In this document: one piece after another, positions 11,988 through 33,279 of the stretch | How positions within the stretch are numbered: the stretch's first letter is position 1 | Layout: each line of letters begins with the position of its first letter | Assembly (NCBI GenBank): GCA_016281475.1 | Contig: JAEEIS010000094.1 | Coordinates: 1 to 33,511, forward strand | Length of the DNA: 33,511 bases | DNA from: Bacteroidales bacterium | Lineage (GTDB): Bacteria > Bacteroidota > Bacteroidia > Bacteroidales > P3 | Direction: 5' to 3' | Made by a program: the position numbers and the translations under genes | The notes under the pieces: model-generated | Database searches by the model: none | Told to the model about the DNA's origin: nothing | What the model saw: the letters and a program-made list of their open reading frames with translations, nothing else

Positions 11988-12034
11988 AACTCGTGAATAG
12001 TGATGTGTGAATGGTGGTTTGTGAATAGTGATGT

Positions 12035-12084
12035 GTGAATTGTGAATGGACAAATGTATTGTCAATTCACCATTCACAATTCAC
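12035..12084. repeat. Inverted pair of interspersed repeats (hairpin) after manC
   Basis: GTGAATTGTGAATGG (12035-12049) and CCATTCACAATTCAC (12070-12084) are a perfect 15-bp inverted pair around a 20-base loop. Flanking copies of GTGAATAGTGATGTGTGAAT extend the repeat array back to about 11990. Confidence 0.75.
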
Positions 12085-12166
12085 CATTCACAAAAAAAAA
12101 TATCAACAGGATGTAAGATTTCGATATGTTGTGCGTCTACATAGTGTAGAATAAAAATTCAATCCC

Positions 12167-12637
12167 ATGAAAAAACATACATTTCTCTACCTCGCCACAG
12201 CAGCCCTTTTGCTTACAGCCTGCGACCCCGGCTACAGTTTCGACTTTGCCGTCAACAACCAGACAAGCCACGCCCTCACCATCCAGTCGCTTGACACGGC
12301 CTGGCACTTCAAAACCATCACAGCCCCCGCACTGACTGACACGGTAGTATTTGCCAACGGGGGATTAGGCACTGCCGAAATATCCCAAGTATCATACGAT
12401 GTGCGCGCCAACATATATGGCGACAGTGTGCAAGTGATATTCGACGACGGGCGGACGCTGAAGTACTACGCCCTCAGCGACACAGTCGGTGGCCTCTACA
12501 GCTTTGCCGACACCAACCACGCAGGTTCGCGCTACATTTATCGACCGCGCATGAACAACCTCACGTTCAAAGGCCATGCCGGCTACTGCCGCTATACCCT
12601 CGTCATCACCGACGACGACTACACCCGAGGCGAATGA
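12167..12637 (+). CDS. Lipoprotein of unknown function, first gene of the radical SAM operon
   Basis: 156 residues with a lipoprotein signal (LLLTAC, Cys19). The mature part is Asp/Thr-rich and beta-strand-like (YSFDFAVNNQTSHALTIQSLD, RYIYRPRMNNLTFKGHAGYC), and contains one internal Cys in addition to the lipidated one. I do not recognise the family. Its last bases overlap the sigma-factor start (ATGA, 12634-12637), which ties it to the operon below. It may be the envelope-exposed sensor or a target of the system; that is inference from position. Confidence 0.75.
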   Translation: MKKHTFLYLATAALLLTACDPGYSFDFAVNNQTSHALTIQSLDTAWHFKTITAPALTDTVVFANGGLGTAEISQVSYDVRANIYGDSVQVIFDDGRTLKYYALSDTVGGLYSFADTNHAGSRYIYRPRMNNLTFKGHAGYCRYTLVITDDDYTRGE

Positions 12638-13113
12638 CCGACGACGAGTTCACCGCGCTGCTGTCGCAAAACGAATGGCTGCTGTACCACATCGGCTACA
12701 CCTTCGCCAAAGGCGATGAGGAAGCCCTGCGCGACCTCTATCAGGAGATGGTGTGCAACCTGTGGAGCAGCCGCAGCCAGTATCGCGGCGACTGCTCGAT
12801 GAAGAACTGGATGTACCGCGTGGCGCTCAACACCGCCATATCGCTTTGGCGCAAAGAGGTGCGACGGCCACGCGTAGTCCCCCTGCCCGAAGAGATGGAG
12901 CAGTGGCTGCGCGACGAACCCGACGACCCGCTGCGCGTGGAACTCTACCGCCTCATCGACCTGTTGCCCAAAGCCGACCAGGCACTGATATACATGTACA
13001 TCGACGGTGCCACCGAGGAAGAAATGGCCGAAACGCTGGGCATAACTACCTCCGCTGTAGGTGTCCGCATCTACCGCATTAAACAAAAACTGAAGAAATG
13101 GAAGACCTTATAG
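12634..13113 (+). CDS. RNA polymerase sigma factor, ECF type
   Basis: 159 residues. Region 2 is around residues 10-70 (DEEALRDLYQEMVCNLWSS, FRGD-like YRGDCSMKNWMYRVALNTAI) and region 4 around 100-155 (LYRLIDLLPKADQALIYMYIDG, EEEMAETLGITTSAVGVRIYRIKQKL) with a helix-turn-helix. Short length and these two regions match sigma-70 ECF proteins. It overlaps both neighbours: ATGA with the lipoprotein upstream and 16 bases with the membrane protein downstream, as is usual for a sigma/anti-sigma pair. Likely directs transcription of this operon or of other envelope genes. Confidence 0.88.
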   Translation: MTDDEFTALLSQNEWLLYHIGYTFAKGDEEALRDLYQEMVCNLWSSRSQYRGDCSMKNWMYRVALNTAISLWRKEVRRPRVVPLPEEMEQWLRDEPDDPLRVELYRLIDLLPKADQALIYMYIDGATEEEMAETLGITTSAVGVRIYRIKQKLKKWKTL

Positions 13114-13673
13114 ACAAACTACGCGACCAACGCCTACAGCAGACAGCACCAGTGAGCGGTGCCCCGTGTATCGTGCCGCCCAAGAGCCGACGCAGCGACT
13201 ACGTCTGGCTGCGCACCCGCCTGCGGGCAGGACTGGTGGGCAGCATCGTGCTCATGATTGCCGTCGCCTGCCTGGTGCCGCTCTATATCCACCGCAGCAG
13301 CTATCTAATCTGTTACATCGTGGTGCAGCTAATCACCATCGTGCGCGTGCTTATCGCCATACAGATGAACATCCCCCTGCGCCACATCGACCCCTCGCAC
13401 AGCGTCAGCGAGGTGGCGGCATACGTCGACCGTCTCGAACTCATCCACCATTGGGATCGCCGCTACACCCTCTACGTCAAGGTGCCGCTGACCATCTGCG
13501 TCGTCACCCTTCTGCTGCCCCTGCTGGGACTCGACCCCTTCGCCGTCCGCTGGGTACTATACCTTTGGGTAGCACTTACCATCATAGCGATAGCACTCAA
13601 CTTTGTTGTCGCCTACCGCTCATTCCTCAAATTAGAGAAATCCATCAACAACCTAAAAAACGAAATATTATGA
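13098..13673 (+). CDS. Membrane protein next to the sigma factor, candidate anti-sigma factor
   Basis: 191 residues, about four membrane helices (AGLVGSIVLMIAVACLVPL, LICYIVVQLITIVRVLIAI, LTICVVTLLLPLLGL, RWVLYLWVALTIIAIALNF) after a ~45-residue cytoplasmic N-terminus that starts MEDLIDKLRDQRLQQ. The start lies 16 bases inside the sigma gene and the stop overlaps the next lipoprotein (ATGA at 13670). No zinc-binding anti-sigma motif (HxxxCxxC) is visible, so the anti-sigma role rests on position, overlap and membrane topology only. Confidence 0.7.
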   Translation: MEDLIDKLRDQRLQQTAPVSGAPCIVPPKSRRSDYVWLRTRLRAGLVGSIVLMIAVACLVPLYIHRSSYLICYIVVQLITIVRVLIAIQMNIPLRHIDPSHSVSEVAAYVDRLELIHHWDRRYTLYVKVPLTICVVTLLLPLLGLDPFAVRWVLYLWVALTIIAIALNFVVAYRSFLKLEKSINNLKNEIL

Positions 13674-14062
13674 ACATCATCAGAAAACTCCTCAAAGGCA
13701 TCTCGCTCACCGCCGCCATGTTCGTGTTCCAGGCCTGCTACGGCACCAACGAATGGAACAGCGATACCGACCTAACCTTCCGTGTAGTCTCCGCCGAAGA
13801 CGGCAGCCCCCTACCCCATGTTAAAATACGCTCGCAACTACAATGCGGCGACTCCGCCCAGGACTGGTATCTGCTGGGTTACACCAACGACGAAGGCATC
13901 TGCTCGGTATGGGTCGCCAACAACTATAGCGGCAACACGCAAACCCTATTCCGTTTCGTAGCCGACGACCCTGCCTATGCTGTCAAAGACACCCTTTTCA
14001 ACGGCTACATCAACCGTGACACCGTCAACATAGCCCTCAGCAAAGTCGACAATGCACAATAG
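13670..14062 (+). CDS. Radical SAM-associated putative lipoprotein
   Basis: 130 residues from the ATG at 13670, which overlaps the previous stop; a longer in-frame reading from 13166 runs through another gene and is rejected. Lipobox FQACYG puts the lipidated Cys at residue 23; the ACYG start followed by FRVVSAEDGSPLPHVKIRSQ resembles the small lipoproteins that regularly accompany a radical SAM enzyme in Bacteroidetes (from memory, the TIGR04133/TIGR04134 pairing). The mature fold looks like a carboxypeptidase-regulatory (transthyretin-like) domain. Two further Cys occur in QLQCGDS and DEGICSV. The last 11 bases overlap the radical SAM gene. It may be the substrate of that enzyme. Confidence 0.82.
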   Translation: MNIIRKLLKGISLTAAMFVFQACYGTNEWNSDTDLTFRVVSAEDGSPLPHVKIRSQLQCGDSAQDWYLLGYTNDEGICSVWVANNYSGNTQTLFRFVADDPAYAVKDTLFNGYINRDTVNIALSKVDNAQ

Positions 14063-15179
14063 CGTCAGCAATACCCTGTTCCGCCTGTTTCGTGCCAACG
14101 AAACAAGAGTCCACGAACTGAACTACCTCTTTTGGGAATGCACCACCCGCTGCAACCTCCACTGCCTCCATTGCGGTAGCGACTGTGCCGCCGCCACCGA
14201 CGACAAGGACATGCCGCTAGAGGACTTCCTGCGTGCCTTCGACACCATCCCCAAAGACGAATTACCACGCAACTTCACCGTGGTACTGACCGGAGGCGAA
14301 CCCCTCCTACGCCCCGACCTTAGCGAGATAGGCCACGCCCTACGCCGCCGCGGTGTAGGTTGGAGCATGGTCACCAACGGCTACCTCTACGACCGCGCCA
14401 TGCACTCCCAGCTGATGGATGCCGGATTGGGCGCACTCACCATCAGCCTCGACGGCCTGGAAGCCGAGCACGACTGGATGCGAGGCCATCGAGGCAGCTA
14501 CCAACGCACTCTCGAAGCCATAGCCATCGCGGCACAAGAACAGCACATCAACTTCGACGTAGTCACATGCGTCAACCAGCGCAACCTCCCACAGCTGCAA
14601 GACATCCACGACCTTCTTGCCTCGCTCGGCGTACCGCAATGGCGCATCTTCACCATCATCCCCATCGGCCGCGCCGTAGGCCAGCCCGACCTACACCTCA
14701 CCGACCCCCAGTTTGTCCAGCTCATGGAGTTCATCAAAGCCAAACGCGAAGCCTCCACCAACGAATTCACACATTCACGAATTCACACATTCATGAACGT
14801 CACCTTCAGCTGCGAAGGCTATCTGGGCCGCTACGAACGCCATGTGCGCCAAAACCCCTACTTCTGCCACGCCGGCATCAACATCGCCTCCGTCCTCATC
14901 GACGGCACCATCTGCGCCTGCCCCAATATCGACCGCCATGCCTTTACCCAAGGCAACATCTACAGCGACAACCTGTGGCAGGTGTGGCAGACCCGTTTCC
15001 AGCCCTTCCGCGACCGCAGCTGGGCACGCCGCGGCATGTGCCAAGACTGCAAGGCCTTCCGCAACTGCCTAGGCAATGGCATGCACAACTGGCACGGCGA
15101 CTGCCAAGAAGTCATCAACTGCCATTATCACAAAACCCTCACACCCCCCGACAACCCCATTAACCCCATCACACCATGA
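14052..15179 (+). CDS. Radical SAM protein of the lipoprotein-associated type
   Basis: 375 residues. The 4Fe-4S/SAM motif CNLHCLHC uses Cys34, Cys38 and Cys41, with extra Cys30 and Cys45 around it. VVLTGGEPLLRPDL is the GGEP motif, followed by MVTNGY and ISLDGL. The C-terminal third is Cys-rich (YFCHAG, CACPNI, MCQDCKAFRNCLGNG, then two more Cys), consistent with a SPASM-like domain carrying auxiliary Fe-S clusters, as in peptide-modifying radical SAM enzymes. It overlaps the lipoprotein upstream (11 bases) and the one downstream (ATGA). Residues ~237-249 (NEFTHS then RIHTFMN) come from an inserted repeat. Substrate unknown; the flanking lipoproteins are the obvious candidates. Confidence 0.9.
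   Translation: MHNSVSNTLFRLFRANETRVHELNYLFWECTTRCNLHCLHCGSDCAAATDDKDMPLEDFLRAFDTIPKDELPRNFTVVLTGGEPLLRPDLSEIGHALRRRGVGWSMVTNGYLYDRAMHSQLMDAGLGALTISLDGLEAEHDWMRGHRGSYQRTLEAIAIAAQEQHINFDVVTCVNQRNLPQLQDIHDLLASLGVPQWRIFTIIPIGRAVGQPDLHLTDPQFVQLMEFIKAKREASTNEFTHSRIHTFMNVTFSCEGYLGRYERHVRQNPYFCHAGINIASVLIDGTICACPNIDRHAFTQGNIYSDNLWQVWQTRFQPFRDRSWARRGMCQDCKAFRNCLGNGMHNWHGDCQEVINCHYHKTLTPPDNPINPITP
14761..14792 (+). repeat. Two tandem 16-bp interspersed-repeat units inside the radical SAM gene
   Basis: ACGAATTCACACATTC occurs twice in a row (14761-14776, 14777-14792). The same units appear between genes at 10920 and 20700. Because 16 is not a multiple of 3, each copy is read in a different frame, as NEFTHS and RIHTF. 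Confidence 0.85.
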
Positions 15180-15550
15180 AAAAACTCATAGTTCTTAGTT
15201 CCTTCCTCCTTCTTCTTTTCGCTGCCTGCGAACCGCCTGAATACCCCACCCTCATCTCAGGCACCCTCTACACCGACAGCACCCTCGCCACCCCTGTCGC
15301 CAACGACACCGTATGGTTCTGCAACATCGACAAGGCATACCTCGGCCACGCCACAACCGACAGCCTTGGCCGCTTCGGATTCTCGTTCTGGAACTTCGAT
15401 GTCACCAAAACCGAATATGAGAGGCGAAAGAACCTTTACTATACCTTCTTTACCCTCTATGGACAAGACACCCTGTTTCGAGGCCGCTATCGCGACGAAT
15501 ACAAGAAACTAATCCTCTTCCCCGGCCGCCGTTGGAGAATCACCCTGTAA
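15176..15550 (+). CDS. Second lipoprotein flanking the radical SAM gene
   Basis: 124 residues with lipobox LFAAC (Cys18). The mature part starts EPPEYPTLISGTLYTDS, followed by VANDTVWFCNIDKAYLG and TTDSLGRFGFSFW, which looks like a carboxypeptidase-regulatory or Cna-B-type beta domain similar to that of the lipoprotein at 13670. One internal Cys (WFCN). The start overlaps the radical SAM stop (ATGA, 15176-15179). Probably another partner or substrate of the enzyme; this is inference. Confidence 0.78.
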   Translation: MKKLIVLSSFLLLLFAACEPPEYPTLISGTLYTDSTLATPVANDTVWFCNIDKAYLGHATTDSLGRFGFSFWNFDVTKTEYERRKNLYYTFFTLYGQDTLFRGRYRDEYKKLILFPGRRWRITL

Positions 15551-15562
15551 CACCTCACCGCC

Positions 15563-16210
15563 ATGAAAAAGACACTCCTACTCATATTTATGCCCCTGCT
15601 GCTCGGCAACACGCAGGCGCAAGAACCAGACTCCCTGCTTATCGACCAGCCACTGCGGCATCATGCCATCACCATCGACCCCTTTACCTTCTACGCCGAT
15701 GCCTGCCTCCTCACCTACGAATATGCCCTCCCCCACCGCGCCTCGCTCGAAGTGGAGCTGGGAGCGCAAGGGTTCCACTGGAAAAAACACCAAGGCAGTG
15801 GTGCCGCCACCCGTCCCGGTATCGCCGCCACCGTCGGCTACAAGTTCTACTTCCCTGCAGGCAAACGCAGCAAGGCGATGGCACGCGCCGGCAGCCTCCC
15901 ACGTGTCGGCTACTTCGTCAAGCCACGCCTCACCTACGTGCACCAATGGAGCAGCTACGATGTCTATGTGGACAATATTGGCTGGGATATTATCACTCAA
16001 CGAACCACCCTCCACGAAAACCACCTCTCCCTAGGCATCATCCTAGGGCGCCAATTCGTGTCGCGCCACGGCTTCGTCTTCACCCCCTACCTCGGCTACA
16101 ACCTGCCGCTTTGGCACAAAGGCCCGTTCCACACCCATGACAATCCTGGCAGCAGTGCCGTCTACTACGGCTACATCTCTGCCGGCATGAAACTCGGCTG
16201 GGCTTTCTAA
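15563..16210 (+). CDS. Predicted outer-membrane beta-barrel protein of the radical SAM operon
   Basis: 215 residues. Signal peptide MKKTLLLIFMPLLLGNTQAQ with cleavage after AQA or TQAQ. The mature sequence has barrel-like strands (ASLEVELGAQGFHWKK, ATVGYKFYFPAG, HLSLGIILGRQFVSRHGFVFTPYLGYNLPLW, YYGYISAGMKLGWAF) and ends in Phe, fitting a small outer-membrane barrel. It starts 12 bases after the lipoprotein stop, so it is co-transcribed. Function unknown. Confidence 0.75.
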   Translation: MKKTLLLIFMPLLLGNTQAQEPDSLLIDQPLRHHAITIDPFTFYADACLLTYEYALPHRASLEVELGAQGFHWKKHQGSGAATRPGIAATVGYKFYFPAGKRSKAMARAGSLPRVGYFVKPRLTYVHQWSSYDVYVDNIGWDIITQRTTLHENHLSLGIILGRQFVSRHGFVFTPYLGYNLPLWHKGPFHTHDNPGSSAVYYGYISAGMKLGWAF

Positions 16211-16251
16211 CCCCACACAATAAAATTCCGCCATCGCCGTTATTATCGGCA

Positions 16252-16428
16252 ATGAAACATACACGACGCAACATATCCCTAGCCCTGTTGGCCATCCTGC
16301 TGCTTGCCTTTGCCGCAGGCTGTAGCAGCAAGGGCGTACACATGCCCAAGCACCGCAAACGCCGCCATTGCGACTGCCCCACCTTCTCCGAAACACAAAT
16401 CCCACAGCCACCACTCTATGTCGCCTGA
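16252..16428 (+). CDS. 58-residue lipoprotein overlapping the SprT-like gene
   Basis: Read directly from the sequence: MKHTRRNISLALLAILLLAF then AAGC with the lipidated Cys at residue 24, followed by SSKGVHMPKHRKRRHCDCP and a short Pro-rich tail. The mature part is basic and carries a CDC motif. It follows the beta-barrel gene by 41 bases and overlaps the SprT-like gene by 11 bases, the same overlap length seen between the lipoprotein and radical SAM genes. The convincing lipobox and the overlap argue for a real gene despite its size. Role unknown. Confidence 0.7.
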   Translation: MKHTRRNISLALLAILLLAFAAGCSSKGVHMPKHRKRRHCDCPTFSETQIPQPPLYVA

Positions 16429-17041
16429 AGAATACAAGGCCATCCTTGCCAAGTACCTGCCCGGCGATGCCGTCGAGCCCGTCTACGCCTTCATGGACCG
16501 CTACAATGTGTTCCTCCACATCACCCGCAAGCGTACCACCAAGCTGGGCGACTACCGCTGTCCGCAACCCCACCACAACTATCAGGAAATTAGCGTCAAC
16601 GGCGACATGAACCCCTACCAGTTCCTCTTGGTGCTAGTGCACGAGATGGCGCACCTCAACACCCACCAACGCTATGGCAACGACGTGCAGCCCCACGGCC
16701 ACGAATGGCAGGAAGAATACCGCCAGCTGATGCTCCAATACCTCGCCTGCTTCCCCGACGATGTCGCCGCGCTGATAACCCAATACACCGCCCGCATCCC
16801 TCTCAGCCGCACCATTGGAAAACAAATCGATGCCCAGCTGCGCCACTACGACCCCGACTACACCCCCTCCGACGAGCTCACGCTCGACCAGCTCGCCCCC
16901 GGCACCGCATTCCGCATCGCCACCAAGCCGCAAAAACTATTCCGCACACTCGAAAAACGCCGCACCCGCTGGCTCTGTCTCTGTCTGGACGACAACAAAC
17001 GATACCTCGTCAACGGCTCTGCGCGAGTCGTCAAATGCTGA
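16418..17041 (+). CDS. SprT-like zinc metalloprotease domain protein
   Basis: 207 residues from the ATG at 16418 (MSPEEYKAILAKYLP); an earlier in-frame start at 16304 would read the lipoprotein gene out of frame and is rejected. VHEMAHLNTH supplies the HExxH zinc site (His75, Glu76, His79), with a third ligand probably in HGHEW about 18 residues on. The C-terminus carries a small beta domain (LAPGTAFRIAT, RWLCLCLDDNKRYLVNG). SprT-like proteins are cytoplasmic metalloproteases or metal-binding proteins. It closes the operon. Confidence 0.85.
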   Translation: MSPEEYKAILAKYLPGDAVEPVYAFMDRYNVFLHITRKRTTKLGDYRCPQPHHNYQEISVNGDMNPYQFLLVLVHEMAHLNTHQRYGNDVQPHGHEWQEEYRQLMLQYLACFPDDVAALITQYTARIPLSRTIGKQIDAQLRHYDPDYTPSDELTLDQLAPGTAFRIATKPQKLFRTLEKRRTRWLCLCLDDNKRYLVNGSARVVKC

Positions 17042-30772: not shown

Positions 30773-31468
30773 ATGGAGAGCGAGAAAGTAATAACCACCC
30801 AAATGACCTCAGAAGTCGAGGTCATCAAGCATCGCATCTACGAAGTGCGACGCTTGCGTGTGATGCTCGACCGCGACTTGGCGGAGCTGTATGGGGTGGA
30901 AACACGTGCCTTGAATCAGGCTGTCAAACGTAATATCGACCGTTTTCCCGATGACTTTTTGTTTCGACTGAATAAGAATGAGTGGACATTTTTGAAATCA
31001 CAAATTGTGATCTCAAATACTGATGCTACTACTGCTGATAATAAAGATGTTGTTACTAATGGCGATAGTTTGAAATCACAAATTGTGATTTCAAACAGAG
31101 GTGGTGATAGAGCACTTCCTTATGCTTTTACCGAATTGGGCATTGCAATGTTGAGTTCGGTCCTGCGGTCAGAGACGGCAATTCAAGTCAACATCAACAT
31201 CATGCGGGCGTTTGTGGCGATACGCCATGCAGTGAGTGCATGGCAAGGGGTGAACCTGAAGGTAGAGCAACTGTCGCACAAAGTGGACCAGCTCAACAAC
31301 TATGTGGAGGAAATCCTGCACGACCAGAACGACATCAACCGCATGCAGGAAGAGACTAACACAGAGATATCACTTCAAATAGAGGCCATCAACGATGCCC
31401 TCGACCAACTGAGAGAGAAATCATCAACCCCACGGAAACGTATAGGCTATAAAACAGAAAAACAATAA
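30773..31468 (+). CDS. ORF6N domain protein
   Basis: 231 residues. The ORF6N DNA-binding domain covers ~15-75 (IYEVRRLRVMLDRDLAELYGV, LNQAVKRNIDRFPDDFLFRLN). The conserved AFTELGIAMLSSVLRSETAI (~122-141) and an antirepressor-like coiled C-terminus (KVEQLSHKVDQLNNYVEEIL) follow. ORF6N proteins stem from phages but are common as chromosomal copies in Bacteroidetes. Between domain and AFTE motif the segment LKSQIVISN occurs twice, each time encoded by a 27-base palindrome. Confidence 0.88.
   Translation: MESEKVITTQMTSEVEVIKHRIYEVRRLRVMLDRDLAELYGVETRALNQAVKRNIDRFPDDFLFRLNKNEWTFLKSQIVISNTDATTADNKDVVTNGDSLKSQIVISNRGGDRALPYAFTELGIAMLSSVLRSETAIQVNINIMRAFVAIRHAVSAWQGVNLKVEQLSHKVDQLNNYVEEILHDQNDINRMQEETNTEISLQIEAINDALDQLREKSSTPRKRIGYKTEKQ
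30991..31095 (+). repeat. Duplicated 27-base palindrome within the ORF6N gene
   Basis: 31069-31095 is a perfect palindrome (13-1-13: TTTGAAATCACAA, A, TTGTGATTTCAAA); 30991-31017 is the same with one mismatch. Spacing is 78 bases, a multiple of 3, so both read LKSQIVISN. Confidence 0.88.
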
Positions 31469-31477
31469 GATATACGA

Positions 31478-31504
31478 TTTGCGGTCGAAAATTTCGACCG
31501 CAAA
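31478..31504. other. Perfect 27-base palindrome after the ORF6N gene
   Basis: TTTGCGGTCGAAA, A, TTTCGACCGCAAA, the same 13-1-13 layout as the palindromes within the gene but with different sequence. No T-run follows. Could be a terminator-like hairpin or a protein-binding site upstream of the DUF262 gene. Confidence 0.7.
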
Positions 31505-31557
31505 ATGAGTTAGAAGAGCTAAAAAAAGGAAACTGCTGAAATAAAACTGTTATAGAA

Positions 31558-33279
31558 ATGAACGCCGGTAAACAGAGCATAAATGGCATTTTTAATGGCA
31601 ATAGAATATTGCGAATACCCTATTTTCAACGTTCCTATGTATGGAATGAAGAACAATGGGAAAGAATGTTGCAGGACATTGAAGGGGTGAGTGCGGGACA
31701 GAGTCCATATTTTATGGGGTCGGTAATTCTTAAGCAAGAAAATACAGCACTTGGCAGCACCGTAGGTGATATAAGAACTATTATTGATGGCCAACAGAGA
31801 TTAACCACATTGTGTATTTTTTTCAAGGTATTAGGTCTAAAAAACAATCAAGATGGTTTAACAAACCGCTTGTTTTGGACAATGGGCGGGCAATTAGCAG
31901 TAGAACACAATCGAAATGACATTATGTCTTTTAACCACATAATGAACCTATCAAATCTTGATGACCTTTCGGATAAAAACGATCGCTTATCTCAATGTTA
32001 TACCTATTTTAAAAACAACATAAAAAAAACTCTTAATTACCAAAACATTCTTAACCAAATTGTTTTGATAGGCATCGAGGTTGACGCTCAAGAAAACGAA
32101 CAGCAGATTTTTGATACCATTAACTCATTGGGTGTTTCATTAACAACTGCAGAGTTACTGAAGAATTATCTTTTCAACAGAGATGAAGCTGCATACATGA
32201 AATATTGGTATCCCGTTTTTGAAGTGGACAAAGAGACAAAAGACTATTGGGACAAAACCATCGTAACAGGTCGATTTAAAAGAACACTTATTGACATTTT
32301 CTTTTATTCGTTTTTACAAATAAAAATCCAAGAAAAACAGGTGGGCAATGGGAATGTGAGTGCTGTGGACAAAGATGAATTTTCAAAAGTAGAAAACCTT
32401 TACGAATCATACAAAAAATACATTACAAATTATAATGTTGACTTGCACATTTTACTCAATGAGGTTAATGAATATGCAAGTATTTTTCATGAAACATTTG
32501 ACCTGGGCATTTTGGAACAAGAATTACCCAAAGAAGCTGGCATTGAAAGAATAAATGCACTCATTTTTGGGATGGACAATTCCACAATCATTCCATATGT
32601 TCTTTACATAATGAAAAAGCAGCAGAATATTGTAGAAAGGAATCTTCTTTTCGACTATATTGAAAGCTACTTAATTCGTAGAATAATTGTGCGTGCCACC
32701 AATAAAAATTACAATCAATTTTTTACCGAGCAATGCATAGGCAAATCATTCTTGTCCAAAAACGATTTGAAAAACAATATTGAACAAGTGCAGAATAGCA
32801 CAGTAAACTATATGCCCAACGATCAGGATGTCTCCATTGCATTATCCACCCAAGTTTACACTAACCACACTGCTGCCAATTTGCTATATTTTGTTGAGTC
32901 GAAACTAAGAGATCGTAGTAAACAATCAACACAACTCTTAGGAATGACAAAATATAGTTTAGAACATCTCATGCCTAAAAAATGGAGAAATCATTGGACA
33001 ATCCCACCAAAACAAGAAGACCAAGAGAAAAGAGACTATATACTTAAAACCATAGGGAATCTAACTATCATAACACAACCATTGAATTCATCAATTAGAG
33101 ATTCTGAATGGAATGTGAAACTTAATGGTCGAAATGGAAAGGAAGGCTTAATCAAGTATGCTGCAGGAATTGAGATTTGTGGCGAGGTTCTTAAATGCCC
33201 TGAATGGAACGAGGTTGAAATTGATTTACGAAAAGATAAACTGGTTAAAATGGTAAATGGTTTTTGGTCAACCAAATGA
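31558..33279 (+). CDS. DUF262/DUF1524 (GmrSD-like) protein
   Basis: 573 residues. DUF262 motifs IPYFQRSYVW (~20-29) and IIDGQQRLTTL (~75-85) form the ParB/Srx-like nucleotide-binding core. Near the C-terminus LEHLMPKKW (~467-475) and IGNLTIITQPLNSSIRD fit a DUF1524 HNH-type nuclease domain. This architecture matches GmrSD-type proteins, single-chain members of which cut modified phage DNA or are part of other anti-phage systems. The gene is very AT-rich, clearly unlike the chromosome, so likely acquired. No operon partner other than the ORF6N gene upstream. Defence function is inferred from family. Confidence 0.88.
   Translation: MNAGKQSINGIFNGNRILRIPYFQRSYVWNEEQWERMLQDIEGVSAGQSPYFMGSVILKQENTALGSTVGDIRTIIDGQQRLTTLCIFFKVLGLKNNQDGLTNRLFWTMGGQLAVEHNRNDIMSFNHIMNLSNLDDLSDKNDRLSQCYTYFKNNIKKTLNYQNILNQIVLIGIEVDAQENEQQIFDTINSLGVSLTTAELLKNYLFNRDEAAYMKYWYPVFEVDKETKDYWDKTIVTGRFKRTLIDIFFYSFLQIKIQEKQVGNGNVSAVDKDEFSKVENLYESYKKYITNYNVDLHILLNEVNEYASIFHETFDLGILEQELPKEAGIERINALIFGMDNSTIIPYVLYIMKKQQNIVERNLLFDYIESYLIRRIIVRATNKNYNQFFTEQCIGKSFLSKNDLKNNIEQVQNSTVNYMPNDQDVSIALSTQVYTNHTAANLLYFVESKLRDRSKQSTQLLGMTKYSLEHLMPKKWRNHWTIPPKQEDQEKRDYILKTIGNLTIITQPLNSSIRDSEWNVKLNGRNGKEGLIKYAAGIEICGEVLKCPEWNEVEIDLRKDKLVKMVNGFWSTK

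What the first reader, a model, noticed from the sequence alone, without database searches (positions are those of the whole stretch)
12167..17041. Nine-gene operon joining a radical SAM enzyme, four lipoproteins, a sigma factor, a membrane protein, a barrel protein and a SprT-like protease
Every junction overlaps or nearly touches (ATGA three times, 11-base overlaps twice, a 16-base overlap, gaps of 12 and 41). Pairing of such a radical SAM enzyme with a small ACYG-type lipoprotein is known in Bacteroidetes (TIGR04133/TIGR04134, from memory), but the ECF sigma factor, candidate anti-sigma protein, extra lipoproteins and metalloprotease make this a larger, self-regulated envelope system. A post-translational modification of the lipoproteins is the simplest reading.
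Basis: partly seen in the sequence, partly recalled or inferred. Interest (0 to 1): 0.72.

Follow-up and report, generated by a model that had tools for sequence, protein, structure and literature searches.

The report
Self-regulated lipoprotein-modifying radical enzyme operon
A gut bacterium carries a self-regulated gene set in which a radical enzyme probably modifies the tyrosine-glycine site right beside the lipid anchor of a partner surface protein, which points to a testable role for a common enzyme family of unknown function.

Summary
All nine ORFs and junctions are real, but they are not one conserved system. A-G (seven genes) keep their order in the four nearest genomes, behind one conserved ECF-type promoter (TGTAAGA-N15-CGTCTA). 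A looser form of that pattern occurs once in three of those genomes and twice in the fourth, the second time before a paralogous F-G pair. So A-G looks like an autoregulated sigma-factor operon. H-I (small lipoprotein, SprT-like protease) is a neighbour: absent after G in two of the four, and I is independent of the enzyme family (17 of 79 genomes, 17.3 expected).

The core is D plus E. E is a TIGR04133 radical SAM enzyme. D shows an inverted lipoprotein pattern: signal peptide through CYG nearly invariant, mature part variable. In 247 genomes, 60 of 68 TIGR04133 genes lie beside a protein with a YGxP or CYG motif, on more than one scaffold. I infer that E modifies Tyr-Gly of D before export. 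X-Y-G is the target of the splicease PlpX, and E groups with TIGR03913/TIGR04103-like enzymes (83/91), so tyramine excision at the lipid-anchor cysteine is the leading, unproven chemistry. Against it: E lacks a SPASM cysteine present in all 120 TIGR03913-type relatives listed.

The parts
12112..12139 (+). ECF-type promoter: -35 TGTAAG (12112-12117), 16-base spacer, -10 CGTCTA (12134-12139), 27 bases before the ATG of A
   Evidence: same hexamers and spacing before A in L001, L002, L007, L077; 5 sites in four whole genomes, 4 of them this operon and 1 before a second F-G pair; 1 exact match in the window
12167..12637 (+). A: lipoprotein (LLTAC-DPGYSFDF), first gene of the operon; no YG site
   Evidence: no Pfam/NCBIfam family over cut-off
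12634..13113 (+). B: ECF sigma factor
   Evidence: TIGR02937 72 bits, PF04542 and PF08281 over cut-off
13098..13673 (+). C: orphan hydrophobic protein with several probable membrane spans, candidate anti-sigma factor
   Evidence: conserved next to B in all four near genomes; 32 protein clusters found, none named; in 1 of 247 genomes of the order
13670..14062 (+). D: lipoprotein, presumed substrate of E; signal peptide then transthyretin/CpD-like beta sandwich
   Evidence: model pLDDT 84.9; Foldseek matches from E 1.8e-4 (SleC) include SusC N-terminal extension (TMt 0.77), transthyretin and CnaB domains
13670..13735 (+). hyperconserved signal peptide of D (residues 1-22), proposed recognition leader
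   Evidence: signal-peptide identity 0.91 vs mature 0.36 where a control lipoprotein family in the same loci shows 0.50 vs 0.82
13736..13744 (+). C23-Y24-G25: lipobox Cys followed by the proposed Tyr-Gly modification site
   Evidence: [A/S]CYG in 65 of 70 similarity-selected family members; the other 5 are fragments or calls that start after the site
14052..15179 (+). E: TIGR04133 radical SAM/SPASM enzyme
   Evidence: cluster cysteines C34, C38, C41 (14151-14174) followed by GS; SPASM-region cysteines 272-357 (14865-15122) with the fourth Cys of CX2CX5CX3C replaced by Gly
15176..15550 (+). F: lipoprotein, regulon member (second copy behind its own promoter in the L007 genome)
15563..16210 (+). 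G: probable small outer-membrane beta-barrel, partner of F
   Evidence: low confidence; F-G paralogue pair behind the same promoter
16252..16428 (+). H: small lipoprotein; adjacent, not part of the conserved unit
   Evidence: present after G in L002 and L077, absent in L001 and L007; with I elsewhere and on the other strand in L038
16418..17041 (+). I: SprT-like metalloprotease; adjacent, not part of the conserved unit
   Evidence: PF10263; relatives in 79 of 247 genomes, independent of TIGR04133

Best explanation
A-G is one autoregulated envelope operon. B is an ECF sigma factor, probably held by membrane protein C, that transcribes the operon from the promoter at 12112-12139. Its working core is D plus E: E, a TIGR04133 radical SAM/SPASM enzyme in the cytoplasm, recognises the nearly invariant signal peptide of pre-D as its leader and modifies the Tyr-Gly site that directly follows the lipobox cysteine (C-Y-G) before export, lipidation and signal-peptide cleavage. 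The modified lipoprotein, lipoproteins A and F and barrel G then act at the outer membrane. H-I is a separate neighbour. Shown: gene identities, conservation, the promoter sequence, the motif and its association with the enzyme family. Inferred: that the motif is the reaction site, the leader role, use of the promoter by B, the anti-sigma role of C, localisation. The exact chemistry is left to the novel case; excision of tyramine is my first choice.
For: E over the TIGR04133 cut-off (461.7 vs 425). A-G synteny in four of four near genomes. Promoter: exact in five of five operons; in four whole genomes the pattern occurs five times, four at this operon and the fifth before a paralogous F-G pair. 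D conservation is inverted relative to seven other lipoprotein families of the same loci. Motif tied to enzyme: FQACYG occurs 24 times in 247 genomes, 15 within 1.5 kb of a TIGR04133 gene; of the other nine, eight are not in a signal-peptide context and the ninth is a D-type protein beside a TIGR04133 gene cut by the contig end. Of 43 other F(Q/E)xCYG sites none is within 1.5 kb (one, FEACYG in G427, lies 1,573 bases away). In the 68 TIGR04133 loci of those genomes a neighbour within two genes has YGxP or CYG in 53 of the 67 with the enzyme called; 15 single control motifs score 0 to 5 of 67; rescanning the misses and one exact FQACYG site give 60 of 68. TIGR04134 over cut-off (33 of 247 genomes) and TIGR04133 at E <= 1e-90 (54 of 247) share 31, p = 1.8e-22. 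The motif sits on CpD-like proteins, on short acidic tails and on lipoproteins outside the TIGR04134-type profile (VYGSPE) alike.
Against: No biochemistry. Three of the 68 enzyme loci (L266, L268, L285) show no motif although flanks are present; three more (L156, L296, L308) end at contig edges; two (L279, L280) have XYG without the proline. The rescan was not run on the control motifs. 4 of 81 near loci have no CYG frame within 1.5 kb, one of them (L050) at a contig edge. CYG invariance is by construction of the selection; the unbiased count is 65 of 70. The seeds of the TIGR04134-type profile were picked by the motif. Two TIGR04134 genomes (G524, G542) have no TIGR04133 hit. C has no detectable anti-sigma domain. 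A hyperconserved signal peptide could serve something other than the enzyme.
Confidence: 0.72

Rival explanations
1. E modifies the Tyr-Gly site but by another chemistry than tyramine excision: for example a Tyr-centred crosslink, beta-carbon oxidation, epimerisation or decarboxylative rearrangement.
For: E lacks the fourth cysteine of the SPASM CX2CX5CX3C motif (Gly in 119 of 119 window-type sequences with the motif; Gly, Ala or Ser in 67 of 67 in the order-wide set), while TIGR03913-type relatives have Cys in 120 of 120; altered auxiliary-cluster ligation could mean altered chemistry. E is far below the TIGR04103 cut-off (133.8 vs 725). No PlpY-like partner was recognised in the operon.
Against: Y and G are the residues kept while the residue before them varies (C in D-type; E, M, A, Q, K in TIGR04134-type), as expected for X-Y-G splicing, and this also excludes a Cys-dependent crosslink as a general mechanism; the Pro two after the Gly is also present in the splice tags with PIRPGYGLPI that PlpXY accepted in FtsZ (2 of the insertions tested; PMC10533398 passages).
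Confidence: 0.4
2. One reading: a nine-gene system in which several lipoproteins are modified and the SprT-like protease takes part.
For: Tight spacing of all nine genes in the window; H-I also follows G in L002 and L077.
Against: H-I absent after G in L001 and L007; I is independent of TIGR04133 across 247 genomes; A, F and H lack the YG site.
Confidence: 0.05
3. The invariant signal peptide is kept for another reason, such as a released peptide signal after cleavage or a special export route, and E acts on a different target.
For: Signal peptide of D is far more conserved than those of control lipoproteins; signal-peptide-derived pheromones exist in other bacteria (recalled).
Against: Conservation runs across the cleavage site into CYG(TP), which a released signal peptide would not explain; TIGR04134-type proteins keep YGxP downstream of the cleavage site; the motif is tied to the enzyme genome by genome.
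Confidence: 0.06

Closest known systems
TIGR04133/TIGR04134 radical SAM plus lipoprotein pair (NCBIfam; function not assigned)
   Same: E is over the TIGR04133 cut-off; a lipoprotein with a Y-G-x-P-type motif and a CpD-like domain lies next to the enzyme. D-type proteins of distant genomes match TIGR04134 weakly, one over cut-off.
   Different: The window's D gives no hit to TIGR04134; its motif is fused to the lipobox (C-Y-G) instead of lying downstream; window-type enzymes form their own supported subclade (99/97); the near genomes hold both a classical pair and this one; here the pair sits in an ECF operon.
Splicease PlpXY and spliceotides (tyramine excision at X-Y-G; Morinaka et al. 2018, known to me only through passages of PMC10533398 and PMC11002830)
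   Same: Radical SAM/SPASM enzyme; X-Y-G motif, with Pro two after the Gly in the accepted PIRPGYGLPI tags; PlpXY needs no leader and also splices tagged whole proteins. WExT..C...C..C with HCGS is shared with TIGR03913 and TIGR04103-like enzymes, and E groups with them in a tree (83/91).
   Different: Not TIGR04103 (133.8 vs 725 bits); one SPASM cysteine missing; the substrate is a lipoprotein with a signal peptide, not a Nif11/nitrile-hydratase leader peptide; no recognised PlpY partner; activity untested. No true PlpX sequence was in the tree.
TIGR03913, 'GDL motif / Y-X(10)-GDL' peptide-associated maturases
   Same: With TIGR04103 the nearest families to the Bacteroidota relatives L101, L104, L106, for which TIGR04133 comes third; the L101 enzyme lies beside two ~57-aa peptides with PYG and LYG.
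   Different: C-terminal extension, fourth SPASM cysteine present, small peptides without signal sequence instead of lipoproteins. Whether TIGR03913 enzymes are spliceases I could not verify.
ECF sigma / membrane anti-sigma operons (FecI/FecR-like and others)
   Same: Sigma gene, overlapping membrane-protein gene, conserved promoter with TGTAA and CGTC elements of the ECF kind (consensus recalled).
   Different: C has no FecR or other known anti-sigma domain; no TonB receptor among A-G; the operon carries the radical SAM pair.

Membership tests
TIGR04133 | whole-protein score over the curated cut-off | tested here: met
   461.7 bits, cut-off 425
TIGR04133 | radical SAM CX3CX2C and SPASM domain | tested here: met
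   C34-C38-C41; PF04055 72.4 bits, PF13186 31.8 bits, both over cut-off
TIGR04134 (for D) | score over the curated cut-off (39.8 bits) | tested here: not met
   no hit at E <= 1; D orthologues of G001-G004 not hit at E <= 10. D-type proteins elsewhere score about 28-36 bits, one 42.5
TIGR04134 (for D) | lipoprotein with YG(xP) motif before a CpD-like domain, beside TIGR04133 | tested here: met
   CYGTN in the window protein (CYGTP is the commonest form, 29 of 65), transthyretin/CpD-like model
Splicease (PlpX type) | X-Y-G motif in the cognate substrate | tested here: met
   motif definition from passages of PMC10533398 and PMC11002830
Splicease (PlpX type) | membership of TIGR04103 (recalled to be the PlpX family, IPR026482) | tested here: not met
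   133.8 bits, cut-off 725; groups with TIGR04103-like and TIGR03913 enzymes in a tree
Splicease (PlpX type) | complete CX2CX5CX3C SPASM motif as in TIGR03913 and TIGR04103-like relatives | tested here: not met
   Gly/Ala/Ser at the fourth position in 186 of 186 TIGR04133 sequences with the motif (one of 187 had no match); Cys in 120 of 120 TIGR03913-type and 5 of 5 TIGR04103-like
Splicease (PlpX type) | PlpY (RRE-like) partner protein | tested here: inconclusive
   no such family hit among the nine proteins; short divergent RREs can escape family models
Splicease (PlpX type) | loss of C8H9NO (135.07 Da) from the substrate | not testable with these tools
   needs mass spectrometry
ECF sigma autoregulated operon | sigma region 2 and 4 domains | tested here: met
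   PF04542, PF08281 over cut-off
ECF sigma autoregulated operon | conserved ECF-type promoter before the operon | tested here: met
   five of five operons; five sites in four genomes
ECF sigma autoregulated operon | cognate anti-sigma factor | tested here: inconclusive
   C overlaps B in five genomes but has no known domain
SprT-like protease as part of the system | co-occurrence with TIGR04133 | tested here: not met
   17 of 79 I-positive genomes carry TIGR04133; odds ratio 0.97, p = 1

The most novel reading that the evidence does not exclude
TIGR04133 enzymes are lipoprotein spliceases. [quoted passage not shown] Across Bacteroidales, classical TIGR04133/TIGR04134 pairs would do the same at XYGxP just inside the mature surface lipoprotein, giving whole surface proteins with electrophilic backbones, here under a dedicated ECF sigma factor.
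Probability: 0.4. Interest if true: 0.87.

Novelty: new variant of a known kind. Interest (0 to 1): 0.68.

Why it matters
TIGR04133 is a common orphan radical SAM family in this order of gut bacteria (54 of 247 genomes at E <= 1e-90, 51 over cut-off). It is named for its gene neighbour, and neither TIGR04133 nor TIGR04134 is mentioned in the paper library searched. The evidence here narrows its unknown to one residue pair, Y-G, and one concrete mass-spectrometric prediction. If right, backbone-edited lipoproteins are a regular part of the gut bacterial surface. The promoter gives a ready regulon marker for finding what signal switches the operon on.

Tried and rejected
Nine-gene co-occurrence: rejected (H-I separable). 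The window's D as a TIGR04134 member by score: rejected, though D-type relatives match weakly. G homologous to the barrel that follows D in another clade (12 of 14 'barrel3' genes overlap D by 4 bases): not shown, profile comparison aligned only 22 columns of signal peptide at 37%. A broader family for C: none found. Sigma-70 promoter and terminator scans: no signal over shuffles. Sigma genes near D-E in other clades (L006, L016, L036, L053, L078, L080) are of mixed arrangement and not taken as the same. TIGR04103-like neighbours: only 2 of 6 loci (L101, L105) showed XYG partners in the short stretches fetched. The tree has no true PlpX, AhbD, NirJ, TIGR04053 or mycofactocin maturases; for the two classical enzymes scanned, TIGR04053 and AhbD score above TIGR04103, so the splicease kinship is moderate, not settled. 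The promoter pattern also matches once in L063, inside a called gene and with a 15-base spacer: read as chance. Stretches of G524, G542 and G427 with TIGR04134-type genes, fetched (L311, L312, L322), were not examined. Literature: Scott et al. [quoted passage not shown] it may already cover part of this. Haft and Basu 2011 is not held.
Full report
What is in the sequence. B is an ECF sigma factor and E a radical SAM/SPASM enzyme of TIGR04133. I is SprT-like. A, D, F and H have lipobox-like signal peptides. G is probably a small outer-membrane barrel, on a weak model. The window's own genome is not held; the nearest relatives are Bacteroidales genomes assembled from animal gut samples, such as sheep and goat omasum (L001, L002).

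Which genes belong together. I scanned genome contigs with E and kept the best 80 loci of 413 that encode a relative, then compared and called genes. A-B-C-D-E-F-G occurs in the same order in L001, L002, L007 and L077 (in L077 F was seen in the translated search only), with ManC upstream in all four. H-I follows G in L002 and L077 but not in L001 and L007; in L038 H-I lies about 4 kb from the enzyme on the other strand. Across 247 genomes of the order, I has a relative (E <= 1e-15) in 79 and TIGR04133 (E <= 1e-90) in 54; they share 17, as chance predicts. H-I is therefore a neighbour, not a part. C is an orphan family: 32 clusters found in a search of 5.8 billion sequences, its own included, none named (that search needs shared 5-residue words).

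Regulation. Aligning the DNA before A in the five genomes shows TGTAAG, 16 bases, CGTCTA in all five, 24-29 bases before the start codon. Searching four whole genomes for TGTAAG-N15-17-CGTCTA gave five sites, all with 16-base spacing and the longer shared form TGTAAGA..T.......TT.TGCGTCTA. Four are this operon. The fifth, in the L007 genome, stands before a second lipoprotein-barrel pair homologous to F-G. About 2.8 chance sites were expected for the shorter pattern from base composition, so one extra site would be no surprise; that it falls just before an F-G paralogue and shares the longer form is telling. I infer that B drives its own operon and little else. That B uses this promoter is inference from autoregulation in ECF systems (recalled).

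The core pair. Gene clustering by similarity, not by motif, put 70 D members in 66 loci; in 75 loci with the enzyme called, D is directly upstream on the same strand in 53 and a neighbour on the other strand in 12. Of the 70, 65 carry ACYG or SCYG at the lipobox; the other five are fragments or gene calls that begin after the site. Conservation is upside down for a lipoprotein: in the loci that also hold lipoprotein family c6, D signal peptides are 0.91 identical and mature parts 0.36, while c6 is 0.50 and 0.82. Six further families show no inversion of this size (F 0.67/0.65, A 0.49/0.57, H 0.52/0.47, c28 0.38/0.48, c29 0.38/0.45, c42 0.64/0.80). Some D proteins keep little else than MKWLHNLLKGLSLTxALFVFQACYGTP and a short acidic tail. 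The mature domain of the window's D models well (pLDDT 84.9) and resembles SusC N-terminal extension, transthyretin and CnaB domains, though the top Foldseek hit is SleC (E 1.8e-4).

The motif follows the enzyme. The four near genomes each hold a second, classical TIGR04133 enzyme (556-576 bits) beside a TIGR04134 lipoprotein with LMYGVPT. Of 34 distinct TIGR04134-type proteins collected from other genomes, 29 have YGxP in the first 110 residues, four have YG without that proline and one is a fragment call; the residue before YG is mostly E or M, also A, Q, K (the profile's seeds had been picked by the motif). In 247 genomes TIGR04134 over its cut-off occurs in 33 and TIGR04133 in 54, sharing 31 (p = 1.8e-22; exceptions G524, G542). 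FQACYG occurs at 24 places, 15 within 1.5 kb of a TIGR04133 gene. Of the other nine, eight lie in short or unrelated frames without a signal peptide, and the ninth (G321) is a D-type protein beside a TIGR04133 gene cut by the contig end. None of 43 other F(Q/E)xCYG sites is within 1.5 kb; one is 1,573 bases away (G427).

I then fetched all 68 TIGR04133 places of that set. In 53 of 67 with the enzyme called, a neighbour of 50-330 residues within two genes has YGxP or CYG in its first 110 residues; fifteen single control motifs gave 0 to 5. A six-frame rescan of the fifteen misses found six more (L298, L288, L248, L267, L310, L260), and L301 has an exact FQACYG site, so 60 of 68. L279 and L280 have XYG without the proline. 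L156, L296 and L308 end at contig edges; L266, L268 and L285 show nothing. The rescan was not run on controls. In L257, L260, L262, L269 and L273 the motif (VYGSPE, LYGTPE) lies in proteins that neither the profile nor TIGR04134 picked up in those genomes. The same two residues on different scaffolds beside the same enzyme is the best evidence that Tyr-Gly is the reaction site.

What chemistry. Passages of PMC10533398 and PMC11002830 say that PlpXY excises tyramine from X-Y-G, acts naturally on MYG and LYG, accepts GYG, does not need the leader, and spliced two of the FtsZ insertions tested, both with PIRPGYGLPI; most other insertions were not accepted. The window enzyme's second-best family of 18950 is TIGR04103, which I recall to be the PlpX family. 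For three of four TIGR04103/TIGR03913-like enzymes scanned, TIGR04133 comes third after those two (L101, L104, L106; fourth for L105). One of them (L101) lies beside two small peptides with PYG and LYG, another (L105) beside a protein with six KYGYP repeats; the other four loci fetched showed no such partner. The signature WExT..C...C..C with HCGS is in 119 of 120 window-type sequences, 57 of 67 order-wide TIGR04133, 118 of 120 TIGR03913-type and 4 of 5 TIGR04103-like, and in none of 20 other SPASM-locus proteins compared. In the tree TIGR04133 groups with TIGR03913 and TIGR04103-like enzymes at 83/91, against Bacteroidota SPASM outgroups only. Against: TIGR04133 has Gly, Ala or Ser instead of the fourth SPASM cysteine in all 186 sequences where the motif was found, while all 120 TIGR03913-type sequences have Cys. 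I therefore hold modification at Tyr-Gly as likely and tyramine excision as the leading but unproven form (0.4).

How it would work. A signal at the envelope frees B from C (inferred). B transcribes A-G. E meets pre-D in the cytoplasm, docks on its signal peptide (inferred) and acts on Y24 next to C23. Export, lipidation and cleavage follow. If tyramine is lost, the anchor cysteine carries a ketoamide and the +2 sorting residue is gone. The lipoproteins D, A and F and the barrel G would form the surface end.

Novelty. The pair type is named for its neighbourhood in NCBIfam; no paper of the library mentions TIGR04133 or TIGR04134. PMC10352776, a RiPP survey of Bacteroidales, has no occurrence of 'lipoprotein', 'TIGR041' or 'spliceo' in its main text (term counts and passages). 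Scott et al. 2022 could not be read. I file this as a new variant of a known kind: a distinct subclade (99/97) whose motif is fused to the lipobox, in an ECF operon.

Noticed in passing
L327/L328 (G002 contig 80): Second F-G pair (lipoprotein plus barrel) behind the same ECF-type promoter in the L007 genome, on another contig than the main operon.
   Followed up: yes
L105:1468-3599: TIGR04103/TIGR03913-like radical SAM gene followed by a 214-aa protein with six KYGYP(C/G) repeats near its C-terminus: a possible multi-site substrate.
   Followed up: partly
L101:828-2865: Flavobacterium-like locus: two ~57-aa peptides with N-terminal PYGVAVR and LYGVGIR beside a TIGR03913-type enzyme.
   Followed up: partly
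L257, L260, L262, L269, L273: TIGR04133 enzymes beside lipoprotein-like proteins of another kind with VYGSPE or LYGTPE instead of the TIGR04134-type partner.
   Followed up: partly
L049, L054, L056, L061, L063, L065, L067, L069, L070, L073, L076 and others: In one clade D is divergent from the enzyme and overlaps by 4 bases a different small barrel-like gene (12 of 14 such genes), a separate pairing of D with a probable outer-membrane protein.
   Followed up: partly
L011, L016, L018: A TIGR04134-like lipoprotein with two YG motifs (AKYG..AEYGCP) directly upstream of D and E: both substrate types in one locus.
   Followed up: partly
window 30773-33279: ORF6N-domain protein followed by a GmrSD-type restriction endonuclease (PF03235, PF07510).
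   Followed up: no
window 11998-12095: Near-repeats (GTGAATAGTGATGTGTGAAT and inverted TTCACCATTCACAA) between ManC and the promoter, not present in the matching stretches of L001, L002, L007, L077.
   Followed up: partly
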